Shown: one piece after another, positions 17,257 through 26,384 of the stretch
Layout of the letters: each line of letters opens with the position of its first letter
How positions within the stretch are numbered: position 1 is the stretch's first letter
NCBI GenBank assembly: GCA_020721005.1
Contig: DYNP01000010.1
Location: 1 to 41,611, forward strand
Direction of reading: 5' to 3'
Source: Thiomargarita sp.
GTDB taxonomy: Bacteria; Pseudomonadota; Gammaproteobacteria; Beggiatoales; Beggiatoaceae
DNA length: 41,611 nt
Program-made: the position numbers and the translations under genes
Notes under the pieces: generated by a model
Told to the model about the DNA's origin: nothing
The model's database searches: none
What the model saw: only the letters and a program-made list of their open reading frames with translations

Positions 17257-18627
17257 TTATTTAAGTCCCAGTTTTTTCAATTTTCGCCATAAAGAGACCC
17301 GATCCATTCCCAACAGATGGGCGGCTTGGGTTTTATTTCCCTCCACTTTTTGCAATACCCATTGTACATAGGCGGCTTCTTGCTCTTCCAGGGATCGAAT
17401 TTTGCCTTGATCTTCATAGCGAAAAATGGCAATTGGTGAGTCCCGCAGGTCTTCCGGTAAATGGGCAACTTCTATAATTTCCCCAGAAACCAAGGCGACA
17501 CCGCGAGCAATTAGGTTTTCTAATTCTCTGATATTTCCAGGAAAATCATATTGTTGTAAGAGTTCCAAGGCTTGTTTGGAAATGTCATGGACTGGTTTTT
17601 TCATCAGTTGCGCATATTTGTTGAGAAAGTAAAAGCTCAATAGAGGAATGTCACTTCTTCGGGCAGCCAGAGGGGGCAAGCGCAATTCAACGACTTTGAG
17701 ACGAAAATACAGGTCTTGACGAAATTGTCCTTGGGAGATTGCTTCTTGGGGATTGCGATTGGTGGCGGCAATGAAACGCACATCAATGGGAATTGTTTGA
17801 GTTGCACCTAAACGCAGCACTTCTTTTTCTTGAAGCACGCGCAGTAATTTAACTTGCATGGTTGGCGTCATTTCTGTGACTTCATCTAAAAATAGGGTGC
17901 CTTGATTGGCAGTTTCAATAAGTCCCACTTTACCAGTGACTGCTCCAGTAAACGCAGCTTTTTCGTGGCCAAACAGTTCGTTAGCCAATAATTCTTCTTG
18001 AAATGCTCCACAGTTGAGACCTACAAATGGCCCATTGACCCGATGACTGTGGGCATGAATGTAGCGAGCCAATAATTCTTTTCCAGTTCCACTTTCCCCC
18101 GTGATCAATATTGCACAATCAGTGGGTGCAATGTGTTTTGCCATGTCCAATAGTTTTAATAAAGTTGGGTCTTGGGTGATGAATCGGGAATGGTCTAAGT
18201 AATTTTCCACTTGATTTTTTAGAGCTCGATTCTCTTGTTTCAAATGCACTTTGGCCAGGGCTTCTTTGACGATATGGCGCACTTCTTCTAAGCGGAAGGG
18301 TTTGGCCAGGTAATAGAAGGCGCCTTGACGCATTGCAGTGACTGCAGATTCCAGCGTGGCATAACCTGTGATGAAAATAACTTCGGTGTCTGGATATAAT
18401 TCCCGACATCGGGCCAGAATTTGCATGCCATCTACTTTTTCCATGCGTAAGTCAGTTAGGACCACATCTACCGGATGTTCTTCGAGTAATTTCAAGGCGT
18501 TAATGCCACTTTGGGTGGATAACACTTCGTAGCCTTCTTTTTGGAGAACGTGGACCAGATTGCGCAGTGCAATTCGTTCATCATCAACCACCAAAATTTT
18601 ATCTTTGGGAATTGGCATGGTGCTCAT
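17257..18627 (-). CDS. Sigma-54-type (NtrC/AtoC-family) response regulator with altered GAFTGA loop
   Basis: 456 residues: receiver domain with Asp59 (VVLTDLRM), AAA+ domain with Walker A GESGTGKE (177-184) and Walker B GTLFLDEV, the R-finger region QDLYFRL, and a C-terminal Fis-type helix-turn-helix (GNKTQAAHLLGMDRVSLWRK). The loop that contacts sigma-54 is normally GAFTGA; here it reads AAFTGA at 224-229 (codons GCT GCG TTT ACT GGA GCA). The rest of the loop and its Glu are intact. The ATG overlaps the stop of the upstream kinase gene by four bases, so the two form a two-component operon. Its targets are probably the divergent genes at 20389-23041; a palindrome at 20141-20157 is a candidate binding site. 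Confidence 0.9.
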   Translation of the reverse strand: MSTMPIPKDKILVVDDERIALRNLVHVLQKEGYEVLSTQSGINALKLLEEHPVDVVLTDLRMEKVDGMQILARCRELYPDTEVIFITGYATLESAVTAMRQGAFYYLAKPFRLEEVRHIVKEALAKVHLKQENRALKNQVENYLDHSRFITQDPTLLKLLDMAKHIAPTDCAILITGESGTGKELLARYIHAHSHRVNGPFVGLNCGAFQEELLANELFGHEKAAFTGAVTGKVGLIETANQGTLFLDEVTEMTPTMQVKLLRVLQEKEVLRLGATQTIPIDVRFIAATNRNPQEAISQGQFRQDLYFRLKVVELRLPPLAARRSDIPLLSFYFLNKYAQLMKKPVHDISKQALELLQQYDFPGNIRELENLIARGVALVSGEIIEVAHLPEDLRDSPIAIFRYEDQGKIRSLEEQEAAYVQWVLQKVEGNKTQAAHLLGMDRVSLWRKLKKLGLK

Positions 18628-20102
18628 TTCTCCTTGGGAATGCTTGGGGCTGGCAGGTGTAGGGTAAATCGAGTGCCGGTTTGATGGGGTTGTTTTGAAT
18701 TGATGTTCTCGACTTGAATGTAGCCTTTGTGGGCGGTGATGATTTCATGGACAATCGAAAGTCCCAAGCCATTTCCATGCCCAATTGGTTTGGTGGTGAA
18801 AAAGGGATCGAAGATTTTTGGCAATACCGCATCCTCTATGCCTGCCCCATCGTCTTGAATAATCAGTTGAATCCAGGGATGAGCCTGAGTGATGGGTTGG
18901 GGCAGTGAGCTCATGGAAAAAGTGCTTGTAGAGTCAATTTCTTTGGCGATTAATTCAAGATGACCTTGTTCCCCCATTGCTTCCACTGCATTTTTTAACA
19001 GGTTGAGCAGGGCTTGTTGCATGCGTTGTTTGTCAGCATAAATCAAGAGGGTTTCGGAAATTTGCAGTTGAATGGAGATGCCAGTTGGCAGTTGTCCGCG
19101 CAGAAATCGTAAGGTATCTTGTATCAGTTGCAACAGAGGTAAAATTTCTTGTTTAAATTCACGATCTTTGGCAAATTCCAATAGGGAACGAACTACCAAA
19201 CGAGTGCGTTCAGTTTGTTCCTCAATTTGAGTCAATAATTCCTGTTGCCATTGTAATTCCGCCATGCCCAATTCTTCTTGTAAAATTTGGCAGGAGGAGG
19301 AAATGTTGGATAAAGGGTTGTTTAATTCGTGGGCGACTCCAGCGAGCAGTGTGCCAAGGGCAGCCAATTTGTCGGTGCGGTGTAGGTGTTGTTGTCGAGT
19401 TTCTAATTGCGCCAGCATTTGATTAAAAGCTGCGGTCAAGGCAATAATTTCTTGTTCCTGACTGTCTAAGGGCAAGGTGGTCAGTTGTCCACCCGCAATG
19501 GCAGTCATGCGTTGTTGAAGTTGACGCAAGGGTTGTATGACGCTGCGAGTTAGCCAGCGACTGAGTCCCAATCCCGCCAGTAACAGGGTTAATAGGGTGA
19601 TAAGTAACCAATGTTTTGAATTGCTGATTGATTGTTGTAGGTCAAGTCGTTCCACAGTGGACAATCTTTCGGCTCGTTGTACAATGAGTTTGCCCAGTTT
19701 ACGAATTTCTTCTTCTTGTTGAAAATCTCTATGATTTTGAGTGGGTTGAAAGTGACTATAACTTTGCAGTCGTTGTTGATAGAGGGTTAAAGTTTGTCGA
19801 AGTAACTTGGTCTCTGCAAGGTCTAAAAATACGGGTTGTGCAAGTAATTCTCTGGCTTGTTTTAAATAGGTGAGGGCTTCAGTTAGGTCATCTAGCTCGT
19901 TGTAAAGAAAGTAATTTTTTTCAAATCGACGCAATTCGAGAATGGCATCAAAGAAGTGGCTGGCCTTGTCCCAAATGATTATTTGTTGATCCAGGCGATG
20001 TAATTCCCAAACGGTTGTCAGTGAGATGAGAGTGACCAATAGGCCAATGATCAGGTAACTGAGTAGAATTTTTTGAGTGATGCTGGGATGCCAAGTGATC
20101 AT
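18624..20102 (-). CDS. Membrane sensor histidine kinase
   Basis: 492 residues. TM1 at about 12-31, a periplasmic helical sensor region about 32-163 rich in Leu and Gln (looks like a four-helix bundle), TM2 at about 165-182, HAMP about 183-235, an H-box with His258 in GVAHELNNPLSNI, and an ATPase domain with N box LLNLLKNAVEAMG, G1 DDGAGI, F-box FDPFFTTK and G2 GNGLGL. The H-box and FFTTK spelling are those of NtrB/AtoS-type kinases that partner sigma-54 regulators, agreeing with the next gene. The signal is unknown. The ATG is followed 4 bp overlapping by the regulator. The promoter region is shared with the divergent exporter operon. Confidence 0.9.
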   Translation of the reverse strand: MITWHPSITQKILLSYLIIGLLVTLISLTTVWELHRLDQQIIIWDKASHFFDAILELRRFEKNYFLYNELDDLTEALTYLKQARELLAQPVFLDLAETKLLRQTLTLYQQRLQSYSHFQPTQNHRDFQQEEEIRKLGKLIVQRAERLSTVERLDLQQSISNSKHWLLITLLTLLLAGLGLSRWLTRSVIQPLRQLQQRMTAIAGGQLTTLPLDSQEQEIIALTAAFNQMLAQLETRQQHLHRTDKLAALGTLLAGVAHELNNPLSNISSSCQILQEELGMAELQWQQELLTQIEEQTERTRLVVRSLLEFAKDREFKQEILPLLQLIQDTLRFLRGQLPTGISIQLQISETLLIYADKQRMQQALLNLLKNAVEAMGEQGHLELIAKEIDSTSTFSMSSLPQPITQAHPWIQLIIQDDGAGIEDAVLPKIFDPFFTTKPIGHGNGLGLSIVHEIITAHKGYIQVENINSKQPHQTGTRFTLHLPAPSIPKEK

Positions 20103-20140
20103 GTGTTCTGATTCAAAGTACGTTCATCAGGTAAAATAGC

Positions 20141-20157
20141 TGTTGCAAAATGCAACA
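20141..20157. promoter_or_regulatory. Palindromic operator candidate between two-component and exporter operons
   Basis: TGTTGCA-AAA-TGCAACA is a perfect 7-bp inverted repeat with a 3-bp centre. A third half-site, AGCAACA at 20172-20178, is spaced exactly 21 bp (two helical turns) from TGCAACA at 20151. This spacing is typical of enhancer-type sites for multimeric activators. The 286-bp spacer shows no convincing GG-N10-GC sigma-54 promoter. Confidence 0.5.
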
Positions 20158-20388
20158 TGGTATGGATAAAAAGCAACAGGGTTGTTTAATTTTAATTAAA
20201 TCAAGAGGATATGGGATCTTTTGGTCCAGAATTATTGAATTGGGTTACAAATTGTTACGGTCAGTTTGGCAGTTATTTTCAGAAAATAGTTTATAAATCA
20301 ATCAGATAAGAACTGGCATGAAATCTGATAGAAAGGTGAAGTTCAACCGAGTTTAATTGTATCATTTTTTGTTCAAGGAAACTATACC

Positions 20389-20835
20389 ATGAGAAACTTT
20401 TCGCAAAGTTTGGAAACGTGGTTTAATGCCATCACTTTTGCCGAAGCAGGTGAATTTGACATTGCTAGAGATTTTCTAAAAGGGGAATCTCATATGTTGT
20501 TGGTGTTGCCTGATGGTAATTTTCAGGAAAACACTTTGGATCATGCCTTGAATTTATGTTCCCGTTGTGGTGTTGCCAATCTGGATATCTTTTATGCTCC
20601 CTTAGCAGAAGCTCATTTGCACAGCGTGTTGCAAACCCATCATAACAGTCCCATCCGTTGGCACATGTTGGCTGTGCAGGGAGATTTGAGTAAAGCAGTG
20701 TTGGATTATACGCGTCAAACTCCGGCTATTGCCTTTGTGATGTTAGGGGCCATGCTGGACAATTTGGCCACTTTAGCTCCCCCTTGGCGACATCTGCCTT
20801 GTCCGTTGGTCATTATGACTCCTCAGGTAACTTAA
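20389..20835 (+). CDS. Small soluble protein, distantly Usp-like, of exporter operon
   Basis: 148 residues, no signal peptide and no membrane segment. I do not recognise a named family. The alternating strands and helices (MLLVLPDG near 36-43, a long helix, LDIFYAP, HMLAVQGD, AIAFVMLGAMLD, CPLVIM near the end) follow the rhythm of a universal-stress-protein fold, but the ATP motif G-2x-G-9x-G(S/T) is absent. An AAGGAAA Shine-Dalgarno stands 8 bp before the ATG. It is followed after 22 bp by a two-TM protein and then by an exporter carrying two true Usp domains, so a regulatory or adaptor role in that exporter is plausible. Function is inferred only from position. Confidence 0.7.
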   Translation: MRNFSQSLETWFNAITFAEAGEFDIARDFLKGESHMLLVLPDGNFQENTLDHALNLCSRCGVANLDIFYAPLAEAHLHSVLQTHHNSPIRWHMLAVQGDLSKAVLDYTRQTPAIAFVMLGAMLDNLATLAPPWRHLPCPLVIMTPQVT

Positions 20836-20857
20836 CTTTTGGTGAAGAAAAAATTTT

Positions 20858-21100
20858 ATGTCAAAGTCAGCAACTCGTGCACAAACAGCAATTTACACTG
20901 GGTTATTGGGTCTTATCAGTGGTTCACTGTATTTTGCCTTATATTGGTTTGAAGAAATCATTTTAGACTGGTCTAAACAGGGAGGCTGGTATTTTTTGGT
21001 GCCTATTGCCATTGCCTTCACCTTTTCCTTGGTGCACGGCAGTTTCACCGGTCATTTTTGGGACTTATTGGGTGTAAAAGCCAAATCAGCTAAATCTTAA
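20858..21100 (+). CDS. Small two-TM membrane protein of exporter operon
   Basis: 80 residues: TM1 at about 9-30 (AIYTGLLGLISGSLYFALYW) and TM2 at about 44-63 (WYFLVPIAIAFTFSLVHG), then a short basic tail ending KAKSAKS. No family name is recognised. It sits 22 bp after the small Usp-like gene and 18 bp before the TauE/SafE-Usp gene, so the three appear to be one transcript. Likely an accessory membrane subunit. Confidence 0.75.
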   Translation: MSKSATRAQTAIYTGLLGLISGSLYFALYWFEEIILDWSKQGGWYFLVPIAIAFTFSLVHGSFTGHFWDLLGVKAKSAKS

Positions 21101-21118
21101 ACGGTAGGGATACTTTGA

Positions 21119-23041
21119 ATGGAAATTAATTTTATTGATTTGGGACTGGCGAATGTCCTGTTTTTATTTGTTGTGGGGTTTGTGGGAGGATTGGTCAGTG
21201 GATTTATCGGCTCAGGCGGCGCTTTTGTTTTAACGCCTGCAATGATGAATATGGGAGTCCCGGCGATCATGGCGGTGGCTAGCAATATCTGCCATAAGTT
21301 TCCCAAAGCTTTAGTTGGGGCTACTAAACGGGCTAAATATGGGCAAGTTGATGTAAAACTGGGCATTGTAATGGGCATTTCTGCGGAAGCTGGAGTGTTG
21401 ATTGGGGCTCATTTACAGGAACACATTACAGCCACTTTTGGGAAAGCCGGGTCAAATCTGTATGTTTCAGCAGTATTCGTTGTGGTGCTGGCAATTGTGG
21501 GCTCTTATGTTTTGCGAGATGCTTGGAAAATGTATCGCTCCAGCAATCCTGACAAAGAAGAAATTGGCGCCATGGCACGCTGGATTCACTCAATTCGGAT
21601 TCCAGGCACCATGATGTATTTTAAGAGCATAGATCGGGAAATTTCGGTATTATTCACCATTCCCTTAGGATTTGCTACGGGCATGTTGGCAGCCACAATC
21701 GCGGTGGGGGGATTTATTGGAGTCCCAGCCATGATTTATTTGTTAGGCGTGCCCAGTTTGATGGCTTCGGCTACAGAATTGGTCATTGCTTTTGTAATGG
21801 GTTTGGGCGGTACCATCAAATATGCTTGGGGTGGATTTGTAGATATTCGTTTGGCCATGATTATTTTAGCGGGTTCCTTATTTGGGATTCAATTGGGGGC
21901 AATCGGTACCACTTATGTTAAACCATACCTAGTAAAAGTAGTAATGGGGGTACTGATGATACTGGTCCTGTTCAGTAGAGGAGTTGCCATTCCCGTTTAT
22001 CTTTCGGAACTGAATATGGGACCAATCCTGGATCCAGGTACGGCTAGTTTATTGAAAGACAGCAGTTTTGTCATGTTGATCTTGGCATTAGCAGTGGGCG
22101 CGGTGATTGTTTTATACGGTTTATGGAGTGGGTATCGCCGCCACGCTCAGGAACAGGCGGCTGAAGCCAAAAAAGATATGGGAATGGATTTGGCGGCAGC
22201 TCACTTATCCCCCATGGGACGATTTGAACGCTTGCTGTTGGTCAGTGATGGCTCTGAATTCAGTCAAGGAGCAGTGAGAGAAGGTATTCATTTGGCTCAA
22301 GTTTGTCAAGGTCGTCTATATGCCCTATCAGTGGTTGGGAATGAGATGGAGAATGAGGCATTGGCAGTCCCTGTTTTAGAAAGAGAACGACAACAGGCTT
22401 TGGAGCATTTACGACAAGTTGAAAATCATGCTCGGCAGGCTGGAGTGACTTGTGAGATGACCTTGCGTTCCGGAATGTCAGTGTATGAGGAGATTTTGGC
22501 GGAAGCTGAGAATCATAGCATTGATTTGGTGGTGATGGGTCGGCGGGGAAGAAGTGGTTTAACTCAATGGTTGCTGGGCAGCACCACTGCTAAGATGTTG
22601 GGTCAGGCTCATAACAGTTTATTGGTTGTGCCCAAGGCTGCTCCCATGGCTGGAAAACGGTTATTGGTGGCGGTGGATGGGTCGCGATATGGAGATGCAG
22701 CAGCGACTGTGGCTTCTCATTTGCTGAAATGTTGGCAGGGAGCTTCTTTAACTCTATTAGCGGTTGTGGTAGAAGAAGGTCCCAAACCTCATTCTGAGAT
22801 GGAGCAATCTGTGCAACAGATGGCTAAATTATTGAATGAGCAGGGAATTTCAGCCAAGACCCAAGTGGTGCGTGGAGACAATCCAGCAGTCAGCATTGTG
22901 GCCACTGCCAAAAGTAATCAAGTGGATTTGATCATTATGGGCACGCACGGGCGAACTGGCTTGGAGAAATGGTTGATGGGAAGTGTGGCGGAACGAGTCA
23001 TTCATTTGTCTGAATGTGCAGTGCTGGTGGTGAAATTCTAA
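21119..23041 (+). CDS. TauE/SafE-family anion exporter fused to two universal-stress (Usp) domains
   Basis: 640 residues. The N-terminal part (about 10-340) is a TauE/SafE permease with roughly eight hydrophobic segments and the family signature GLVSGFIGSGGAFVLTP (24-40) plus its internal repeat GFATGMLAATIAVGGFIGVP. Family members move sulfite, sulfoacetate or other sulfur anions. The cytoplasmic part holds two Usp domains, about 369-505 and 513-639, each with a complete ATP motif G-2x-G-9x-G-S: Gly474/Gly477/Gly487 and Gly608/Gly611/Gly621. So the transporter may be regulated by ATP or adenylate binding. The ATG 21119 has AGGGA upstream. Last gene of the operon, ended by a hairpin terminator at 23128. 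In a sulfide oxidiser, sulfite or thiosulfate handling is the most reasonable role, but the substrate is unproven. Confidence 0.88.
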   Translation: MEINFIDLGLANVLFLFVVGFVGGLVSGFIGSGGAFVLTPAMMNMGVPAIMAVASNICHKFPKALVGATKRAKYGQVDVKLGIVMGISAEAGVLIGAHLQEHITATFGKAGSNLYVSAVFVVVLAIVGSYVLRDAWKMYRSSNPDKEEIGAMARWIHSIRIPGTMMYFKSIDREISVLFTIPLGFATGMLAATIAVGGFIGVPAMIYLLGVPSLMASATELVIAFVMGLGGTIKYAWGGFVDIRLAMIILAGSLFGIQLGAIGTTYVKPYLVKVVMGVLMILVLFSRGVAIPVYLSELNMGPILDPGTASLLKDSSFVMLILALAVGAVIVLYGLWSGYRRHAQEQAAEAKKDMGMDLAAAHLSPMGRFERLLLVSDGSEFSQGAVREGIHLAQVCQGRLYALSVVGNEMENEALAVPVLERERQQALEHLRQVENHARQAGVTCEMTLRSGMSVYEEILAEAENHSIDLVVMGRRGRSGLTQWLLGSTTAKMLGQAHNSLLVVPKAAPMAGKRLLVAVDGSRYGDAAATVASHLLKCWQGASLTLLAVVVEEGPKPHSEMEQSVQQMAKLLNEQGISAKTQVVRGDNPAVSIVATAKSNQVDLIIMGTHGRTGLEKWLMGSVAERVIHLSECAVLVVKF

Positions 23042-23127
23042 TGTAAGTTTTTGAGTATAAAGAGTTTATGTAAAAAAATAAATCCTAGTCTTATCCGTTT
23101 GATTTATCCTTGTAGAAGCAATTTGAG

Positions 23128-23163
23128 CCTGTCAGGTCGTTGAGATCTGCCAGGTTTTTTTTT
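23128..23163 (+). terminator. Rho-independent terminator of the exporter operon
   Basis: CCTGTCAG at 23128-23135 pairs with CTGCCAGG at 23147-23154 (one mismatch), followed directly by nine T residues at 23155-23163. It lies 87 bp after the stop codon. Confidence 0.8.
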
Positions 23164-23181
23164 CAAAAAATAAAGGGGACG

Positions 23182-23603
23182 TTACCCTTTTTTAGGTCGC
23201 CCTTCTGCTTTCTCAATCATACCTGCTCGCACAGGATTACGCTCCACATAGCGCACACAATGCCACAAATAAGCCTCATTCAACACACTGGAAAAAAAAC
23301 GCCCTGCCAAAGATGCCCCGACCAGCCCTGTTGTCGATTGATATATTGGGCATAACGCATGTGCAAAGGTTTTAACGCACATTGCAAGCTATCCACTTGA
23401 ATAGGAATGACGACGAGATGGATATGGTTACTCATCAGACAATAAGCCAGCACTCTAACCTGATGCTGCTGGCAATAGTCTTTGAGCTACGCAAGATATT
23501 GATAGCGGTCATCATCTGTAAAAAACACATTTTCATGACGATTACCACGTTGCGTAATGTGGTGAGGTAAATCTGGAAATACAATTTGAGCGAGTCTTGG
23601 CAT
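23182..23603 (-). pseudogene. RAYT/Y1 REP-associated transposase, decayed copy 1
   Basis: Translation from ATG 23603 gives MPRLAQIVFPDLPHHITQRG, typical of TnpA_REP proteins, and later YCLMSNHIHLVVIP with the HUH metal motif HIH. The frame is broken by TAG at 23489-23487, and then needs a -1 shift at a run of eight T (A8 on the plus strand, 23292-23299) to continue as FFSSVLNEAYLW and RYVERNPVRAGMIEKAEG. The C-terminal third is deleted. The end fuses into the shared 3' tail (GGGCGACCTAAAAAAGGGTA). Short inverted sequences AAAGGGGACG at 23171 and CGTCCCCTTT at 23640 mark its ends. Dead as it stands. Confidence 0.85.
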
Positions 23604-25860: not shown

Positions 25861-26224
25861 TTAACAGCTGCCCTGTCCTGTCAAAACCTCCAGTTTTTGC
25901 ACAAAACTATCTGAACCCCAAGGCAATTTTTTATTGATATTACACCTGAACATTTCTATGTGAGGAGGATTGTCTCCCTCTTGCAACCAAGCTGACCAAT
26001 CAGGAATATCTTGAAACATCTTCCAATTCACACAAATCACAATGTGCAACTGCACTTGACCAAGGATGGTCTTCTGCTTTCTCAACCATACCTGCTCTAC
26101 CTGCTCGCACAGGATTACGCTCCACATAGCGCACACCATGCGACAAATAAGCCTCATCCAACACTCTGGAAAAAAAACTCCCTGCCAAACATGCCCCGAC
26201 CAGCGCTATTGTCGAGAGTATCAT
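25861..26224 (-). pseudogene. RAYT/Y1 REP-associated transposase, 3' fragment (copy 2)
   Basis: Only the C-terminal half remains: WSGHVWQG, then after a -1 shift at eight T (A8 at 26170-26177 on the plus strand) SFFSRVLDEAYLSHGVRYVE, RNPVRAGRAGMVEKAED (with a small RAG duplication) and HPWSSAVAHCD. A further frameshift near 26000 leads to IPDWSAWLQEGDNPPHIEMF and the C-terminal FVQKLEVLTGQ. The N-terminal catalytic HUH half is missing. It is fused at about 26217 to an unrelated truncated gene. Same orientation as copy 1, 2.6 kb away. Confidence 0.8.
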
Positions 26225-26384
26225 CAATATCAGTGATAATCACTCCGTCAGTAACTGCCAGTTTGCGCCCAAAGGGAATCTCCATACCACTTTCCCGTAA
26301 ATGATAAGGGTAGGCGGGTTGCACCTTAACCATTGCCTCTTTGATCAAATTTAAATATTTGTCGACATGGCTGCTTGTGAACAT
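26217..26384 (-). pseudogene. Truncated unknown gene downstream of phoR
   Basis: Begins ATG at 26384 (MFTSSHVDKYLNLIKEAMVK), 14 bp after the phoR stop on the same strand, and runs for about 56 residues (ESGMEIPFGRKLAVTDGV and DIDDT are the last native parts) before it merges with the RAYT fragment. I do not recognise the family. It looks like the beginning of a third gene of the phoB-phoR operon cut off by the transposase insertion. Confidence 0.5.

What the first reader, a model, noticed from the sequence alone, without database searches (positions are those of the whole stretch)
20103..23041. Two-component system divergent from a TauE-Usp-Usp exporter operon
A conserved-looking unit: kinase and regulator on one side; a Usp-like small protein, a two-TM protein and a TauE/SafE permease with two ATP-motif Usp domains on the other. 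The shared spacer has a perfect TGTTGCA/TGCAACA palindrome and a third half-site at exactly 21 bp. This suggests a dedicated, nucleotide-sensing sulfur-anion export system with two accessory proteins that I cannot assign to a known family.
Basis: partly seen in the sequence, partly recalled or inferred. Interest (0 to 1): 0.6.

Follow-up and report, generated by a model that had tools for sequence, protein, structure and literature searches.

The report
Regulated sulfur-anion permease with tiny partner
A relative of the giant sulfur bacteria carries a gene set in which a sensor pair probably switches on a membrane transporter, likely for a sulfur anion, together with an undescribed tiny membrane protein that sits beside this kind of transporter in nearly every genome examined, mostly microbes that oxidise or reduce sulfur with the enzyme Dsr.

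Summary
A histidine kinase/NtrC-type regulator pair is transcribed away from a Usp-like gene (U148), an 80-aa two-TM gene (tm80) and a TauE-Usp-Usp fusion. In 80 related loci tm80 lies directly upstream of TauE in all 78 with room for it; searched the other way, 15 of 17 tm80 hits in 369 genomes have TauE adjacent. The divergent unit recurs in Nitrospirota. The palindrome is the regulator's probable enhancer: TTGCA-N3-TGCAA (the LuxO consensus), exact or with one mismatch, is in 17 of 18 homologous divergent regions. Carriers nearly always have dsrA (25 of 25 versus 10 of 32 relatives; 45 of 50 across phyla), which supports a sulfur-oxyanion substrate. Sulfite export is the favoured reading, but neither substrate nor direction is shown. 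EBP-controlled TSUP operons are known in Desulfovibrio; what I did not find described is the tm80 partner family, the Usp-fused clade and the cross-phylum regulatory footprint. New variant of a known kind.

The parts
17257..18627 (-). Response regulator: receiver, sigma-54 AAA+ and Fis-type HTH domains (NtrC type); overlaps the kinase gene by 4 bases
   Evidence: Pfam Response_reg 101 bits, Sigma54_activat 225, HTH_8 47; overlap and Walker A
18624..20102 (-). Sensor histidine kinase: two TM segments flanking a predicted periplasmic helical bundle, HAMP, HisKA, HATPase_c
   Evidence: Pfam; two hydrophobic segments; model with mean pLDDT 79.7, pTM 0.59; four-helix matches
20103..20388 (.). Divergent spacer between kinase and operon
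20141..20157 (.). Probable enhancer of the regulator, TGTTGCA-AAA-TGCAACA (core TTGCAN3TGCAA at 20143-20155)
   Evidence: core exact or with 1 mismatch in 17 of 18 homologous divergent regions
20172..20178 (+). Third half-site AGCAACA, 21 bp after the TGCAACA at 20151; the same AGCAACA variant occurs in one-mismatch sites of relatives
20314..20330 (+). Sigma-54-like promoter TGGCATGAAATCTGATA (-24 GG; -12 reads TGA, not TGC), enhancer core 171 bp upstream
20389..20835 (+). U148: 148-aa protein, N-terminal FAEAGE motif plus a Usp fold without the nucleotide motif
20858..21100 (+). tm80: 80-aa protein with two hydrophobic segments, no known family, conserved neighbour of TauE
21119..23041 (+). 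TauE/SafE (TSUP) permease, Pfam match at residues 16-284, fused to two Usp domains with nucleotide motifs

Best explanation
It is a dedicated, signal-induced transport module. The kinase reads a periplasmic signal through a helical-bundle sensor and phosphorylates the NtrC-type regulator. The regulator binds the TTGCA-N3-TGCAA enhancer and drives sigma-54 polymerase from 20314-20330, switching on U148, tm80 and TauE-Usp-Usp; the site near the kinase start may also set kinase and regulator levels. TauE is the channel for a sulfur oxyanion, most likely sulfite leaving a cytoplasm in which Dsr makes or uses it. tm80 is an obligatory small partner of this TauE clade, probably a membrane subunit. 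The tandem Usp domains bind a nucleotide and tune the permease to energy state; U148 has lost the nucleotide motif and may be a protein-protein adaptor. Shown by sequence: the parts, the conserved linkage, the conserved operator and promoter, and the dsrA association. Inferred: phosphorylation, binding, tm80 as subunit, nucleotide gating, substrate and direction.
For: tm80 is beside TauE in 78 of 80 loci, the 2 misses being cut by contig ends; in reverse, 15 of 17 tm80 hits in 369 genomes have TauE adjacent. A divergent regulator and/or kinase homologous to the window's stands upstream of U148 in 17 of 25 U148 loci, 4 more being cut by contig ends. Operator core exact or with 1 mismatch in 17 of 18 divergent regions; 13 of 19 exact matches in 953 kb lie in the 25 kb of those regions. 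Promoter and enhancers at similar distances in relatives. dsrA match in 25 of 25 TauE-positive against 10 of 32 TauE-negative relatives, p 2e-8; within the family 24 of 24 against 6 of 12, p 5e-4; class sample 13 of 15 against 99 of 354 over the cut-off, p 6e-6; across phyla 45 of 50. SulP within the fetched flanks in 8 of 80 loci.
Against: No experiment on substrate or direction; one paper proposes sulfite import, not export, for a TauE of Archaeoglobus (PMC3949148, passages). dsrA occurs in sulfate reducers and oxidisers alike, so the link fits sulfate as well as sulfite. Counting only matches over the curated cut-off, dsrA is 22 of 25 against 9 of 32, no tighter than aprA (22 of 25 against 9 of 32). 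5 of 50 carriers across phyla, and G206 in the class sample, show no dsrA over the cut-off; the Fisher tests ignore shared ancestry. No dsr, apr or soe gene was recognised beside the module, but only about a dozen neighbour proteins were looked up. The window's regulator has AAFTGA where 19 of 19 homologues have GAFTGA or GAYTGA, and its -12 is TGA: the local switch may be weak. No proximal enhancer with at most 1 mismatch was found in the window. Many fused TauE loci lack U148, kinase and regulator, so the switch is optional.
Confidence: 0.5

Rival explanations
1. Same module, but the substrate is sulfate (import in reducers, export in oxidisers) rather than sulfite.
For: SulP sulfate-permease genes lie near 8 of 80 loci; dsrA links to reducers and oxidisers alike. 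A published tree has a conserved TSUP clade B, including DVU2958, discussed as a possible sulfate transporter in some sulfate reducers (PMC5840216, passages).
Against: Whether this TauE belongs to that clade was not tested; TauE of Cupriavidus is described as a sulfite exporter (as cited in PMC3949148 and PMC5840216, passages).
Confidence: 0.25
2. A general stress or energy-state operon whose TSUP protein carries another anion (organosulfonate or carboxylate); the dsrA link reflects shared habitat and ancestry.
For: Usp-rich content; sigma-54-controlled TSUP and PSE operons in D. vulgaris have no known substrate, and two PSE ones are co-regulated with lactate genes (PMC4641369, passages).
Against: Within one family TauE of this clade occurs only in genomes with a dsrA match, 24 of 24 against 6 of 12; carriers across phyla 45 of 50, though without a measured background.
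Confidence: 0.15
3. tm80 is not a subunit but a free small protein, or a coupling device for TauE translation, kept by linkage alone.
For: Gaps of 0-36 nt in 71 of 78 loci suit translational coupling; no interaction was modelled.
Against: Residues, not only position, are conserved over 24 sequences: A53, F63, F67 and W68 invariant; none of the 15 strong tm80 hits lies elsewhere.
Confidence: 0.1

Closest known systems
TauE/SafE (TSUP) sulfite exporter of Cupriavidus necator
   Same: Same Pfam family; proposed sulfite transport
   Different: No tm80, Usp fusion or kinase/regulator is mentioned in the passages seen; direction here unknown
Sigma-54 EBP-controlled TSUP operons of Desulfovibrio vulgaris (DVU0132-0133; DVU2956 with DVU2957 onward)
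   Same: TSUP permease driven by an enhancer-binding protein: response regulators bind upstream of DVU0132-0133, and the divergent EBP DVU2956 binds upstream of DVU2957 (PMC4641369, passages); DVU2958 is a TSUP protein (PMC5840216, passages)
   Different: DVU2956 is not a two-component regulator; operators not compared here; presence of tm80 there not tested
LuxO of Vibrio (qrr promoters)
   Same: NtrC-type regulator; operator consensus TTGCAW3TGCAA fits the window core exactly, sites 89-120 bp upstream of predicted starts (PMC11443567, passages)
   Different: Regulator scores 322 bits against the LuxO model cut-off of 800; LuxO targets there are small RNAs
Usp proteins tied to transporters (TeaD of TeaABC; Rv2623 with Rv1747)
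   Same: A Usp belonging to or binding a transporter; 3hgm (TeaD) is among the structural matches of U148 (Rv2623 from the start of an abstract in the listing)
   Different: There separate proteins; here two Usp domains fused to the permease plus a motif-less Usp

Membership tests
TauE/SafE (TSUP, PF01925) | Pfam match above cut-off | tested here: met
   132.9 against 32.6 bits
TauE/SafE (TSUP, PF01925) | about eight TM segments | tested here: met
   8 hydrophobic segments (simple Kyte-Doolittle)
TauE/SafE (TSUP, PF01925) | sulfite or sulfonate transport | not testable with these tools
   needs a flux assay
Usp (C-terminal domains of the fusion) | Pfam match and G-2x-G-9x-G-S/T motif | tested here: met
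   171.9 bits; motifs at 474 and 608
Usp (U148) | Usp fold | tested here: met
   19 of the best 21 VIA-align rows are titled Usp (the other two 'hypothetical'), top Z 11.7, rmsd 3.0, 113 aligned; Foldseek alone is weak, best E 1.8e-3, unrelated folds from rank 5
Usp (U148) | Pfam cut-off | tested here: inconclusive
   window protein no match; 9 of 23 aligned members match Usp at E 0.01 or better, best 1.1e-5
Usp (U148) | nucleotide motif | tested here: not met
   0 of 23
NtrC-type sigma-54 activator | receiver, AAA+ and Fis-type HTH domains | tested here: met
NtrC-type sigma-54 activator | GAFTGA loop | tested here: inconclusive
   AAFTGA in the window; GAFTGA 18 and GAYTGA 1 of 19 homologues
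Sigma-54 promoter | GG at -24 and GC at -12, ten bases apart | tested here: inconclusive
   GG-N10-GA in the window; TGC at -12 in L051, L064, L066, L067
LuxO | curated model cut-off | tested here: not met
   322 against 800 bits
GlrR (QseF) | curated model cut-off | tested here: not met
   369 against 763 bits
TSUP clade B of sulfate reducers | position in the TSUP tree | not tested
   DVU2958, Adeg_0175 and Dret_2118 sequences were not at hand

The most novel reading that the evidence does not exclude
tm80 is the obligatory second subunit of a previously unrecognised two-subunit TSUP permease that serves Dsr-based sulfur metabolism in both directions, gated by fused nucleotide-binding Usp domains: an energy-gated sulfite valve under its own sigma-54 two-component switch, shared between Pseudomonadota and Nitrospirota.
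Probability: 0.3. Interest if true: 0.75.

Novelty: new variant of a known kind. Interest (0 to 1): 0.5.

Why it matters
How cells running Dsr keep cytoplasmic sulfite in bounds is, to my knowledge, open, and TSUP substrates are mostly untested. A permease clade with a near-constant, unnamed partner, an explicit operator and promoter, and a tie to dsrA gives a concrete candidate, with mutants, footprints and flux assays that can be done at once. It also warns that testing such a TauE alone, without tm80, may fail.

Tried and rejected
Wider regulon: the operator core occurs at 8 places in the genome, against 2 for the reversed pattern. Of the 7 others, 5 lie inside predicted genes and 2 between genes (L184, L185); the promoter pattern occurs nowhere else in the genome. 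So no regulon beyond this operon is claimed.

U148 as a general family: only 3 of 369 class genomes match its 7-row profile, the window's own and two weak ones; it looks tied to this module, not to TauE in general.

Solved homologues of the TauE clade or of tm80: no credible match.

A published name for the module: the searches listed none that I recognised; the library holds only open PMC papers, and the TSUP review of Shlykov is not held.

aprA as a weaker partner than dsrA: with split dsrA matches counted, dsrA is 25 of 25 against 10 of 32; over the curated cut-offs both are 22 of 25 against 9 of 32. So the link is to the Dsr/Apr sulfur pathway, not clearly to dsrA alone.

The sigma-54 score of the window alone is modest (p 0.055 against single-base shuffles); the claim rests on conservation. 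The pattern used was drawn after seeing the window's own site.

The tree is a quick one, the careful search unfinished; U148 loci cluster but no transfer direction is claimed.

The sensor matches lie near what helical bundles reach by chance, and designed bundles rank among them; no ligand is claimed. No Foldseek match of either model reached E 0.001.
Full report
1. What is there. The kinase and regulator genes (18624-20102 and 17257-18627, minus strand, 4-base overlap) point away from three plus-strand genes: U148 (20389-20835), tm80 (20858-21100) and TauE-Usp-Usp (21119-23041). The regulator has receiver, sigma-54 AAA+ and Fis-type HTH domains, so it is an NtrC-type activator. The fusion carries TauE at residues 16-284 and two Usp domains, each with the G-2x-G-9x-G-S motif. 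U148 and tm80 of the window match no Pfam or NCBIfam model; among 24 aligned tm80 sequences only scattered matches appear, no family in more than 2 of them.

2. Related loci. 57 genomes, 36 of them (the window's included) in one family, were searched with the fusion; 26 match, 25 of them with the TauE part (G004 has only the Usp-Usp part and is not counted). One scan of named genomes with the TauE profile gave 80 loci, the best 80 of 462: sulfur-bacterial and other Proteobacteria, Magnetococcales, and many Nitrospirota.

3. tm80 and TauE. tm80 lies directly upstream of TauE in 78 of 80 loci; in the other two the contig begins 148 and 34 bases before TauE. The gap is 0-36 nt in 71 of 78, though starts were chosen mechanically. 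The reverse test used the tm80 profile on 369 genomes of the class: 17 matches, 15 with TauE adjacent; the two others are weak (E 3e-6, a 31-residue piece, and 7e-5, inside a 463-aa frame). The profile was built from tm80 genes beside TauE, and 3 of the 15 genomes (G000, G021, G023) had given it sequences, so the test leans towards linked copies. TauE may occur without Usp domains or with them as a separate gene.

4. The divergent unit. U148 (E below 1e-10) is in 25 of the 80 loci. In 17 a minus-strand regulator (59-85% identical to the window's) and/or kinase (35-71%) stands upstream; in 6 of these (L120, L125, L132, L138, L158, L161) a further gene of about 670-700 aa, similar to regulators, lies between, and in L114 the unit belongs to a second TauE copy. 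4 loci (L111, L121, L136, L150) are cut by contig ends within about 1 kb; 4 (L097, L103, L154, L164) have no such pair in view. Of 19 loci with a regulator at least 58% identical, 17 have U148; L098 and L105 do not. U148 begins with a segment rich in FAEAGE..A, which I read as one TPR-like hairpin (my reading, no tool). The same segment makes up separate small genes, mostly 60-125 aa, in front of U148 or tm80 in Nitrospirota. The predicted U148 structure (mean pLDDT 78.6) matches Usp structures best (Z 11.7 and down), but 0 of 23 aligned members keep the nucleotide motif.

5. The operator. In 18 divergent regions (303-3190 bp, some holding the extra gene) the core TTGCA-N3-TGCAA is exact in 9 and within one mismatch in 17; L105 is the exception with 2. 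Of 19 exact matches in 953 kb of the 80 loci, 13 lie in these 25 kb. TTGCAW3TGCAA is the published LuxO consensus (PMC11443567, passages). Among six loci of the same family checked one by one, two exact sites occur in L039, one-mismatch sites in L041, L051 and L067, none in L064 and L066; L060, which has no U148, has none either.

6. The promoter. TGGCAYGN5TGATA occurs once in the window and once in the 4.05-Mb genome, at 20314-20330. 20 of 80 loci have TGGCAYN6TGA within 3.3 kb upstream of TauE (29 matches forward and 8 reverse in all 953 kb). 12 of the 20 also have enhancer cores (at most 1 mismatch) within 450 bp, with a proximal one 87-91 bp upstream of the promoter in 10, 80 bp in L162 and none in L097; a farther core lies 157-299 bp upstream in all 12. 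The window's core lies 171 bp upstream, and in its nearest relative (L039, a looser promoter match) 172 and 283 bp. The -12 reads TGA in the window and many Nitrospirota, TGT in some and TGC in others; the window's regulator has AAFTGA where its homologues have GAFTGA or GAYTGA. Both weaken, but do not remove, the sigma-54 reading.

7. Sulfur link. A dsrA match (TIGR02064, E up to 1e-50) is present in 25 of 25 TauE-positive and 10 of 32 TauE-negative genomes (p 2e-8); within the family 24 of 24 and 6 of 12 (p 5e-4). Some matches are split; over the cut-off the numbers are 22 of 25 and 9 of 32, the same as for aprA. In the class sample 13 of 15 tm80-TauE genomes exceed the dsrA cut-off, G067 has a truncated match and G206 none, against 99 of 354 (p 6e-6). 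Across phyla 45 of 50 carriers have dsrA over the cut-off (50 of the 80 loci given; no background for Nitrospirota was measured). SulP genes lie in 8 of 80 neighbourhoods. The tests do not correct for ancestry.

8. Mechanism. The sensor model is a helical bundle, with NarQ first in Foldseek (E 5e-3) and LytS, McpS and QseE among the highest by VIA-align (Z 13.9-14.8); a designed bundle scores 14.3, and about 13 may be chance for such folds. So a periplasmic signal is plausible and its nature open. The rest of the chain (phosphorylation, enhancer binding, sigma-54 activation, permease with tm80, Usp gating) follows from the families. Sulfite is favoured because it is the cytoplasmic substrate or product of Dsr in both reducers and oxidisers (general knowledge) and because TauE has been proposed as a sulfite exporter; the same paper suggests import for a TauE of Archaeoglobus (PMC3949148, passages). 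Sulfate remains open (PMC5840216, passages).

9. Known context. In D. vulgaris nine sigma-54 operons encode TSUP or PSE transporters, and DVU2956, divergent from its target operon, binds upstream of it; no substrate data existed (PMC4641369, passages). B. leptomitoformis lacks rDsr, and its TauE/SafE did not change in the proteome comparison reported (PMC11507549, passages). So an EBP-controlled TSUP operon is not new; the tm80 partner, the Usp-fused clade and the cross-phylum operator/promoter footprint were not found in the searches.

Noticed in passing
window 17257-18627 (-): The regulator's GAFTGA loop reads AAFTGA, unlike all 19 homologues compared; real change or sequence error unknown.
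   Followed up: partly
window 23182-23382 (-) and 26000-26227 (-): Two short frames sharing a segment RYVERNPVRAG, which I recall from REP-associated (Y1) transposases; they look like remnants on either side of the 23.7-25.7 kb gene.
   Followed up: no
window 23125-23166 (+): A possible stem followed by a run of T downstream of the fusion, perhaps a terminator (by eye).
   Followed up: no
L104, L113, L114, L123, L142, L166 and others: In other Nitrospirota a different kinase/regulator pair (regulator 42-47% identical) and a ~166-aa Usp gene precede tm80-TauE; some (L113, L142, L166, also L135, L139, L143) have a sigma-54-like promoter with no TTGCAN3TGCAA core within 450 bp: apparently the same permease under another switch.
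   Followed up: partly
L131:4031-6655: A SulP permease with STAS and Usp domains fused, just upstream of tm80-TauE: a second transporter-Usp fusion.
   Followed up: no
L154: Enhancer cores and promoter in front of U148, but no matching regulator recognised within the fetched flank.
   Followed up: no
L099, L108, L109, L120, L127, L128, L140, L162 and others: Separate small genes built around the FAEAGE..A motif of U148, placed before U148 or tm80; function unknown.
   Followed up: partly
L116 (UBA12141): A record titled Moraniibacteriota carries tm80-TauE with a TauE that groups with Nitrospirota in the quick tree; perhaps a mis-binned contig.
   Followed up: no
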